Below the pieces are notes generated by a model, which had not been told where the DNA came from, did no database searches, and worked only from the letters and a program-made list of their open reading frames with translations. A stretch of DNA of 64,000 bases from Methylovulum sp. (GTDB lineage Bacteria; Pseudomonadota; Gammaproteobacteria; Methylococcales; Methylomonadaceae), in the NCBI RefSeq assembly GCF_028687615.1, contig NZ_JAQTZU010000011.1, positions 1-64,000 on the forward strand. Direction: 5' to 3'. The position numbers and the translations under genes are program-made. Positions 57,675-60,003 of the stretch are shown here, piece by piece. Positions within the stretch are counted from its first letter, which is position 1; every line of letters begins with the position of its first letter.

Positions 57675-58502
57675 TCAATAACGCCGACCCGTAGCCAACA
57701 AATCGTCAATATAATTTTTGGCAGGGTAATGGAAATGGACGGGGCCATCAGCCGCCCCTGACATAAATTGCCGTGTCCATTCAGAAGAAGATTGTTTAAT
57801 TTCAACAGGACTGCCCTGGTCAACCACTTTTCCTTCAGAAATGATGTAGATGTAATCGGCGATTTGTGAAGTCTCGGCAACGTCATGGGAGACGATAATG
57901 CTGGTCAAACCGAGCGCGTTATTCAAGGATTTGATCAGATGCACCAAAATCCCCATCGCAATCGGGTCTTGTCCGGTAAACGGCTCATCGTAAAGGATCA
58001 TCATCGGATCGAGGGCAATCGCCCTGGCTAAGGCCACGCGCCGCGCCATCCCCCCCGATAGCTCGTTCGGCATCAGTTGGCTCGCCCCCCGCAAACCGAC
58101 CGCCTGCAACTTCATCAGCACTAAAGTGCGGATCATGGATTCGGGCAAATGCGTATGTTCACGCAATGGAAATGCGACATTATCGTAAACCGTCATGTCA
58201 GTCAGCAATGCCCCGCTTTGAAACAACATGCCCATGCGTTTACGTAGCTCGTAAAGTTCATAGCGGCGTAGTTGATGGACGTTTTGACCATCCACAGTAA
58301 CAGAGCCTTGTGACGGGCATAACTGCCCGCCAATCAATTTTAACAGGGTCGTTTTGCCAGTACCGCTAGGGCCCATGATCGCCGTCACTTTGCCGCGCTC
58401 AAAATCCAAGGAAATATCGTCGAATATTTTTTTGTCGCCACGGGAAAATGACAATTGTCGGACACAAACCAAACTCGTTTCGGGAAAATCGCTGTTATCC
58501 AT
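57675..58502 (-). CDS. mlaF: Phospholipid-transport (Mla) ABC ATP-binding protein
   Basis: IMGPSGTGKTTLLKLIGGQ, LFQSGALLTDMTVYDNVAFPLREHT, ELSGGMARRVALARAIALDP, YDEPFTGQDPI. Confidence 0.88.
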   Translation of the reverse strand: MDNSDFPETSLVCVRQLSFSRGDKKIFDDISLDFERGKVTAIMGPSGTGKTTLLKLIGGQLCPSQGSVTVDGQNVHQLRRYELYELRKRMGMLFQSGALLTDMTVYDNVAFPLREHTHLPESMIRTLVLMKLQAVGLRGASQLMPNELSGGMARRVALARAIALDPMMILYDEPFTGQDPIAMGILVHLIKSLNNALGLTSIIVSHDVAETSQIADYIYIISEGKVVDQGSPVEIKQSSSEWTRQFMSGAADGPVHFHYPAKNYIDDLLATGRRY

Positions 58503-58504
58503 GC

Positions 58505-58577
58505 TATTAATTGTTTCATAAGTAATCGCACCTTAATTTCAAAATTGTTTCGGCGATTACTTATGAAACAATTAATA
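58505..58577. repeat. Long palindrome 1 (25-bp perfect stem, 23-nt loop)
   Basis: TATTAATTGTTTCATAAGTAATCGC (58505-58529) / GCGATTACTTATGAAACAATTAATA (58553-58577). Confidence 0.95.
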
Positions 58578-58592
58578 ACCTATTGATTGGAT

Positions 58593-58665
58593 GTATTAAT
58601 CGTCCCATAAGTTCGCGTACAGTAACCTTATCCTACTGTGCGCGAACTTATGGGACGATTAATAC
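58593..58665. repeat. Long palindrome 2 (32-bp stem, 31/32 match, 9-nt loop)
   Basis: GTATTAATCGTCCCATAAGTTCGCGTACAGTA (58593-58624) / TACTGTGCGCGAACTTATGGGACGATTAATAC (58634-58665). Confidence 0.95.
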
Positions 58666-59025
58666 TTAGGGAGCCACTTTGAAGTAAATTTATTTATTGT
58701 GTCTGACTATACTTTATTAAGTCAATCCCAATCCATTTTTAAACGGAAGCTTGATAAAAGTACAATAGGACGTTTTAAGAGGGCCGCCATCGCCTGGTTC
58801 ATTTAACACGGAAACAATTTATCGCTTTCTGATGGAGCGCGAAGGGAATAAGCATGGCATAATGGCGATATTTTTAGATTCGCTTATCGCAACACCAACT
58901 TGCTTGGGCGTATACGATGGCTGGCATTACCTGCTTTTATATTTCATGACGAACGCTATGATCAAACCGTTTTTTAATCATTTTTTTGTCCTAAACTCAC
59001 TAACGCGCAAATTTGGAGGCAAAAA

Positions 59026-60003
59026 ATGAAATTAAATGACCAAAAACTCCGTGAATTAGGAAAAGCGGTCATCCAAGTGGAAGCGCAGGCAATAGCCGAT
59101 CTGGAAGATCAAATTAACGATAATTTTGTCGCCGCGTGTAAACTGCTGTTCGAATGCACTGGACGGGTGGTGGTCATCGGCATGGGCAAATCCGGGCATA
59201 TCGCCAGCAAAATTGCCGCAACGCTCGCCAGCACCGGCACACCGGCTTTTTTTGTACATCCGGGTGAGGCCAGCCACGGAGATTTGGGCATGATCACCAA
59301 ACATGATGTGGTGGTGGCGCTGTCAAATTCCGGGGAGACCGAAGAAGTCCTGACCATTTTGCCTATCATCAAACGTCTGGGCGTCCCGCTGGTTGCGATA
59401 ACGGGTAATGAGAAATCAACTTTAGCGGGATTTTCAACTACTTACCTAAATGTCGCCGTTAAACAGGAAGCCTGTCCCTTGGGGCTGGCCCCAACATCGA
59501 GCAGCACCGCCGCCTTGGTGATGGGCGACGCGCTGGCTGTTTCATTATTGGAAGCACGCGGTTTCACCCGCGATGATTTTGCCCTCGCCCATCCTGGCGG
59601 AAGCTTGGGAAAACGTTTGTTATTGCGGGTCAGGGATATTATGCACGTCGGTGTCAACATGCCTTCCGTGCCTGAATCGGCATTGATCAGCCACGCCCTG
59701 CTGGAAATGACCGAAAAACAATTGGGTATGACGGCTATTGTGGAAGCCAACAACCGGGTCATCGGTATTTTTACCGACGGCGATTTACGCAGGATGCTGG
59801 GAAGGAACTTGGATATCCATAGCACCCCGATCACCGAAGTGATGACCCCGCATTGCGCCGTCATCACTGCCGATATACTCGCTGCCGAAGCCATGCAAAT
59901 TATGGAACAGAAAAAAATTAACGCGCTCATTGTGGTCGATAACCAGCAATGCGCTATCGGGGCCTTGAACATGCACGATTTGATCCAGGCAGGTATTGTC
60001 TGA
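59026..60003 (+). CDS. kdsD: Arabinose-5-phosphate isomerase
   Basis: SIS domain VVVIGMGKSGHIASKIAATLASTGTPAFFVHPGEASHGDLG + CBS pair. Confidence 0.95.
   Translation: MKLNDQKLRELGKAVIQVEAQAIADLEDQINDNFVAACKLLFECTGRVVVIGMGKSGHIASKIAATLASTGTPAFFVHPGEASHGDLGMITKHDVVVALSNSGETEEVLTILPIIKRLGVPLVAITGNEKSTLAGFSTTYLNVAVKQEACPLGLAPTSSSTAALVMGDALAVSLLEARGFTRDDFALAHPGGSLGKRLLLRVRDIMHVGVNMPSVPESALISHALLEMTEKQLGMTAIVEANNRVIGIFTDGDLRRMLGRNLDIHSTPITEVMTPHCAVITADILAAEAMQIMEQKKINALIVVDNQQCAIGALNMHDLIQAGIV

What the first reader, a model, noticed from the sequence alone, without database searches (positions are those of the whole stretch)
58505..58665. Two tandem, related long palindromes 3 nt upstream of the mlaF start codon
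Seen: stems of 25 bp (perfect) and 32 bp (31/32), 15 nt apart, whose outer arms share TATTAATyGTyyCATAAGT, giving four related half-sites in 161 bp. They lie between divergent mlaF and kdsD, and palindrome 1 occupies the mlaF leader where the RBS would be. Such length and arm similarity point to a mobile or recombination-associated element (MITE-like or recombinase sites) or an unusual regulatory structure.
Basis: partly seen in the sequence, partly recalled or inferred. Interest (0 to 1): 0.7.

Follow-up and report, generated by a model that had tools for sequence, protein, structure and literature searches.

The report
Double-hairpin MITE inserted before mlaF
The two long palindromes are one copy of a small, gene-less jumping DNA element (a MITE of the IS630/Tc1-mariner group) that is scattered in dozens of places in this methane-oxidising bacterium and landed right in front of the mlaF gene; it is an ordinary kind of element with an unusual two-hairpin build.

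Summary
Both palindromes together are one copy of a multi-copy, two-hairpin MITE of the IS630/Tc1-mariner group in a Methylovulum-like methanotroph. The genome holds 108 matches to its terminal repeat (control 3); related copies occur in other Methylovulum genomes. The sister species M. miyakonense has the uninterrupted kdsD-mlaF spacer with a single TA where this genome has TA-element-TA, so the element inserted with TA duplication. Four further loci show clean empty sites, one of them for a single hairpin A alone. A ~1.1 kb IS630-family insertion sequence with the same ~20-bp terminal repeat occurs in Methylobacter, Crenothrix and another gammaproteobacterial MAG, with an intact transposase in one. 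No DDE_3 transposase was found in the window's own genome, so the copies look orphaned there. The less ordinary part: many copies have terminal-repeat ends only on the outside, while in others, including this one, the inner arms exactly mirror the outer arms, giving internal transposon-like ends. Arms agree within single copies more than between copies, as template-switch (quasipalindrome) correction would give. Any effect on mlaF expression is inferred only.

The parts
58505..58664 (.). whole composite MITE, counting the TA at each end (net insert 158 bp plus duplicated TA)
   Evidence: filled/empty comparison with M. miyakonense G019 and three other genomes; about 8 two-hairpin copies elsewhere in the genome
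58505..58577 (.). hairpin A: 25-bp perfect arms, 23-nt loop, bounded by TATTAAT...ATTAATA; inserted alone at another locus
   Evidence: L097 vs L257
58578..58592 (.). 15-nt connector between the hairpins, shared by other two-hairpin copies (consensus AACTTATTGATTGGATG region)
58593..58665 (.). hairpin B: 32-bp arms (31/32), 9-nt loop
58505..58523 (+). outer terminal repeat (A side)
58559..58577 (-). inner terminal-repeat-like arm of A
58594..58612 (+). inner terminal-repeat-like arm of B (reads TATGTGTATCCCAT-like, not TIR-like, in half of the aligned copies)
58646..58664 (-). outer terminal repeat (B side)
57675..58502 (-). mlaF (ABC transporter ATP-binding protein), start codon next to the element
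   Evidence: start position conserved in the genus
58696..58725 (-). possible native mlaF promoter (TTGACT-18-CACAAT, 9/12), now separated from mlaF by the element; weak consensus match, not above chance
   Evidence: stretch largely conserved in the aligned relatives
59026..60003 (+). kdsD, divergent neighbour

Best explanation
The two palindromes are one non-autonomous transposon copy: a two-hairpin MITE of the IS630/Tc1-mariner superfamily that inserted into a TA dinucleotide just upstream of the mlaF start codon, after this lineage split from Methylovulum miyakonense. Shown: multi-copy family; terminal repeats shared with an IS630-family IS in related bacteria; TA duplication; empty sites. 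Inferred: an IS630-family transposase recognised the TATTAATyGTyyCATAAGT ends and joined the element at a TA; that source is not found in this genome now. Inferred: the inner arms of the hairpins were overwritten with copies of the outer arms by template-switch correction of imperfect palindromes, which explains the four related half-sites. Inferred and untested: if transcribed from a native promoter, the mlaF leader now folds into two very stable hairpins, the second ending 2 nt before the start codon, which would be expected to lower translation initiation or change mRNA stability.
For: Own genome: 8 two-hairpin copies including this one (86-100% identity) plus many single-hairpin and partial copies; 108 half-site matches against 3 for the reversed control pattern. 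Relatives: copies in G010, G019, G009, G023 and others; half-site hits in Methylovulum, Methylobacter, Crenothrix and other Methylococcales records, among chance hits in unrelated taxa. Empty sites: kdsD-mlaF; L065/L255, L087/L259, L077/L267 and single-hairpin L097/L257, all fitting a TA duplication. Autonomous partner: ISs of 1,089-1,095 bp bounded by the same repeat in L104, L119 and L128; L119 encodes a 337-aa protein with DDE_3 (1.3e-34) and HTH_33 domains; remnants of such an IS with the same terminal repeat in two Methylovulum genomes. Arm concordance: arms within a hairpin are more alike than arms shuffled between copies (own genome, B: 22.9 vs 19.9 of 25; long A-like type: 23.2 vs 22.2; 0 of 5000 shuffles reach either); 7 pairs with changes on both sides. 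RNA fold of the leader -96.8 kcal/mol, z = -11.6.
Against: No DDE_3 transposase and no match to the L119 transposase in this genome, so present mobility is unsupported; the assembly has 56 contigs and could lack a repeated IS. Identity to the IS ends is limited to about 20 bp. The TA duplication can be read only from filled/empty comparisons because the ends are themselves TATTAAT; at L063 the empty allele is ambiguous. Arm concordance could also come from selection on paired ends or from subfamily structure.
Confidence: 0.95

Rival explanations
1. The palindromes are a conserved local regulatory structure of mlaF or kdsD (operator pair or RNA leader switch).
For: Very stable predicted leader fold next to the start codon; other copies also lie within a few nt of gene starts.
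Against: Absent from the kdsD-mlaF spacer of the relatives aligned, including the sister species; same sequence at dozens of unrelated loci.
Confidence: 0.03
2. REP/REPIN-type repeats moved by a RAYT (Y1 HUH) transposase.
For: Hairpins in tandem and inverted orientation; Y1_Tnp genes exist in the genome.
Against: Insertion at TA with duplication and ~20-bp TIRs shared with an IS630-family IS. The flanks of the Y1_Tnp genes were not inspected.
Confidence: 0.02
3. Recombination sites of a tyrosine or other site-specific recombinase.
For: Four related half-sites in 161 bp.
Against: Copies sit at many unrelated TA sites with precise empty alleles, and the half-site is the end of an IS630-family IS.
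Confidence: 0.01
4. Alternative for the inner ends: two single-hairpin MITEs A and B were originally separate and became neighbours by one inserting beside the other, and the copies with non-TIR inner ends are decayed forms, rather than template-switch correction creating new ends.
For: Hairpin A is found inserted alone (L097/L257).
Against: Two-hairpin copies share the connector; the non-TIR inner ends TTATGTGTG and GTATTACAAT recur in the same form across loci and genomes (20 and 4 arms), which independent decay would not give; copy-specific variants are mirrored in both arms of one hairpin (C24c CGCCCC/GGGGCG; hfq copy).
Confidence: 0.35

Closest known systems
RUP (repeat unit of pneumococcus), thought to be mobilised by IS630-Spn1
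   Same: Short gene-less intergenic repeat, 108 copies, TA target, TIRs shared with an IS630-family IS (PMC2229807)
   Different: RUP is a single ~107-bp unit; here two long hairpins in tandem, each with transposon-like ends, in a methanotroph, with no partner transposase found in the genome
Correia/NEMIS elements of Neisseria
   Same: TA at termini, target duplication, ~107/155 bp, ~24-bp TIR, stable stem-loops in transcripts (PMC2229807)
   Different: No sequence relation shown; IHF-site and promoter functions were not looked for here
IS630/Tc1-mariner insertion sequences such as ISY100
   Same: DDE_3 transposase with N-terminal HTH domains and TIRs in the proposed partner; ISY100 belongs to the Tc1/mariner/IS630 family and its transposase suffices for excision in vitro (PMC2170065 abstract)
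   Different: The window element encodes nothing and would need transposase in trans
Template-switch (quasipalindrome) correction of inverted repeats
   Same: Homogenises the arms of imperfect inverted repeats (PMC8604942 abstract; PMC8794818 and PMC7202029 abstracts)
   Different: Here proposed to have produced new transposon ends inside a MITE; not demonstrated

Membership tests
MITE | short, non-coding, multi-copy, interspersed | tested here: met
   about 160 bp; dozens of loci; none of 35 inspected copies lies deep inside an ORF (crude ORF calls)
MITE | terminal inverted repeats shared with an autonomous element | tested here: met
   19-21 bp shared with ~1.09-kb ISs in L104, L119, L128, all in other genomes
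MITE | target-site duplication and empty sites in relatives | tested here: met
   TA at kdsD-mlaF and four further loci
IS630/Tc1-mariner-derived | partner IS encodes a DDE_3 transposase with HTH domains | tested here: met
   PF13358 1.3e-34, PF13592 1.5e-15 on the L119 protein
IS630/Tc1-mariner-derived | partner transposase present in the same genome (needed for present, not past, mobility) | tested here: not met
   no DDE_3 and no L119-like match in G000
IS630/Tc1-mariner-derived | transposase acts on these ends | not testable with these tools
   needs a transposition assay
REP/REPIN with RAYT | tagged 20-40 bp hairpin flanking a RAYT gene | tested here: inconclusive
   Y1_Tnp genes exist but their flanks were not read; hairpin length and TA insertion do not fit
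site-specific recombinase site | fixed site with linked recombinase | tested here: not met
   copies at unrelated TA sites with empty alleles; linked recombinase genes were not searched for

The most novel reading that the evidence does not exclude
A MITE can make new transposon ends inside itself: template-switch correction of its imperfect hairpins copies the outer terminal repeat onto the inner arm, turning one two-hairpin element into two potentially independent mobile units. Replication errors, not only the transposase, would then multiply transposon families.
Probability: 0.35. Interest if true: 0.55.

Novelty: new member of a known kind. Interest (0 to 1): 0.33.

Why it matters
It explains a striking structure as a MITE insertion and shows such elements sitting against gene starts in a methanotroph (mlaF, trpB and others). 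If the inner ends really arose by arm correction, it gives a directly testable route by which a palindromic MITE acquires new transposon ends.

Tried and rejected
Plasmid search gave only E = 7 chance matches; phage search (E limit 1e-3) gave no match; an exact 20-mer scan of viral contigs gave none. RAYT transposases were considered but TA duplication and the IS630 link fit better; the attempt to read the RAYT flank failed on a coordinate error and was not repeated. I first read several copies (L078, L079, L094) as precise losses of one hairpin; L079 turned out to carry a diverged hairpin B upstream, and the others were not resolved against an empty site, so no claim of precise unit excision is made. 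Recalled resemblances (Nezha, ERIC) were not tested.

Full report
Observation. The palindromes are present exactly as described: 25/25 and 31/32 bp arms, 15 nt apart, with four perfect copies of TATTAATyGTyyCATAAGT that occur nowhere else in the window. The element begins 2 nt upstream of the mlaF ATG (58502, minus strand); kdsD starts about 360 bp on the other side.

It is a repeat family. In the window's own 3.49-Mb genome the 191-bp region finds seven other two-hairpin copies at 86-91% identity and many single-hairpin or partial copies. The half-site pattern with up to 2 mismatches has 108 matches against 3 for the reversed control. Among 40 relatives, other members of the genus (G010, G019, G009 and weaker ones) and one other genus of the family (G023) have matches, while none of the 16 genomes of other families in the order does. 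G019 is Methylovulum miyakonense HT12: its single contig has the length of NZ_KB913025.1. The window genome is in the same genus.

It is a transposon insertion. Aligning the mlaF-kdsD spacer with G019, G006, G013 and G015 shows a 158-bp gap exactly at the element: the filled site reads ...ccatgcTA-TTAAT...ATTAA-TActt..., the empty site in G019 ...ccatacTAcc.... Four more loci have empty alleles in M. miyakonense, or in both M. miyakonense and G006, consistent with duplication of a single TA: C6 (L065), proA-like (L087), C17 (L077), and C43 (L097), the last being hairpin A alone. At a fifth (L063) the junction is ambiguous. At trpB (L094) the insertion is shared with M. miyakonense but absent in G006, hence older.

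Its likely driver. Scanning loci from the public genome set for pairs of these ends about 1.1 kb apart gave three insertion sequences: L104 (Crenothrix MAG), L119 (Methylobacter MAG) and L128 (gammaproteobacterial MAG). L119 has an open 337-aa transposase matching DDE_3 and several HTH families, as in the IS630/Tc1-mariner group; the other two have interrupted frames. Their ends match the MITE ends for 19-21 bp. Remnants with the same end and 64-88% similarity to the transposase over short stretches lie in two Methylovulum genomes, G001 and G011. The window's own genome has no match to this transposase and no DDE_3 protein at all, so its copies look orphaned unless the assembly dropped the IS.

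Architecture. Across copies there are two hairpins: A (or a longer A-like form with 63-67 nt between half-sites) and B, joined by a connector related to AACTTATTGAATGG(G)(T)ATTAC or AACTTATTGATTGGATG. In many copies the inner ends are not terminal repeats (TTATGTGTG... for A in 20 arms, GTATTACAAT... for B in 4 arms); in others, including the window copy, they mirror the outer ends exactly. In the ten-copy alignment, five copies carry the mirrored inner end of B, and copy-specific variants occur in both arms (C24c CGCCCC/GGGGCG; TGTTAAT/ATTAACA in C24c hairpin A; the hfq-locus copy CATCAG/CTGATG with lost TATTAAT ends). Within-hairpin arm identity exceeds that of arms shuffled between copies for B and the long A-like type (0 of 5000 shuffles), less clearly for the short A (p = 0.06 own genome, 0.017 all), and seven base pairs show changes on both sides. 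This is what template-switch correction of imperfect palindromes would give, a process described for inverted repeats (abstracts of PMC8604942, PMC8794818, PMC7202029); selection on paired ends or subfamily history are not excluded. The shuffle test does not account for relatedness of copies.

Consequence at mlaF. In the alignment a stretch that includes a weak promoter-like match on the mlaF strand (58725-58696) is largely conserved upstream; the three promoter-like matches in the region are no more than chance (2.3 expected). If mlaF is transcribed from there, its leader would fold at -96.8 kcal/mol (z -11.6) with hairpin A ending just before the ATG. That this lowers or alters mlaF expression is inference. 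In crude ORF calls, other copies also lie close to gene starts, for example 4 nt before trpB and 7 nt before a PilB-like start; whether this exceeds what intergenic TA sites would give was not tested.

Comparison. The closest described case is RUP of Streptococcus pneumoniae with IS630-Spn1; Correia elements are similar in size and TA ends (PMC2229807). The window element works like RUP as far as the sequence shows, but is a sequence-unrelated, two-hairpin family. No description of it was found in the paper library searched, which is limited to open-licence papers; ISfinder was not available.

Noticed in passing
L079:1750-1906: Copy upstream of hfq: both arms of hairpin B changed to TGAGCGTCCCATCAGTTCGC, losing the terminal-repeat ends while staying palindromic.
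   Followed up: partly
L094:1688-1778: Hairpin A with connector remnant a few nt before trpB; shared with M. miyakonense, absent in G006, so an older insertion kept in both species.
   Followed up: partly
L091:1963-2046 and L068:1865-1948: Hairpin copies ending 7 nt before, and overlapping, the start codons of a PilB-like gene and a response regulator gene (names from reading the first residues only).
   Followed up: no
L153:3097-3200 and L175:2579-2734: Gammaproteobacterial MAG HyVt-418 carries different short elements with the same terminal repeat, apparently another MITE family of the same IS group.
   Followed up: no
L168:4775-5271: Internally shortened copy of the IS630-type IS with both ends, an intermediate between IS and MITE.
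   Followed up: no
L200-L204 (G000 C2, C56, C19, C51): Y1_Tnp (RAYT/IS200-like) genes in the window's genome; flanks not examined for their own palindromes.
   Followed up: no
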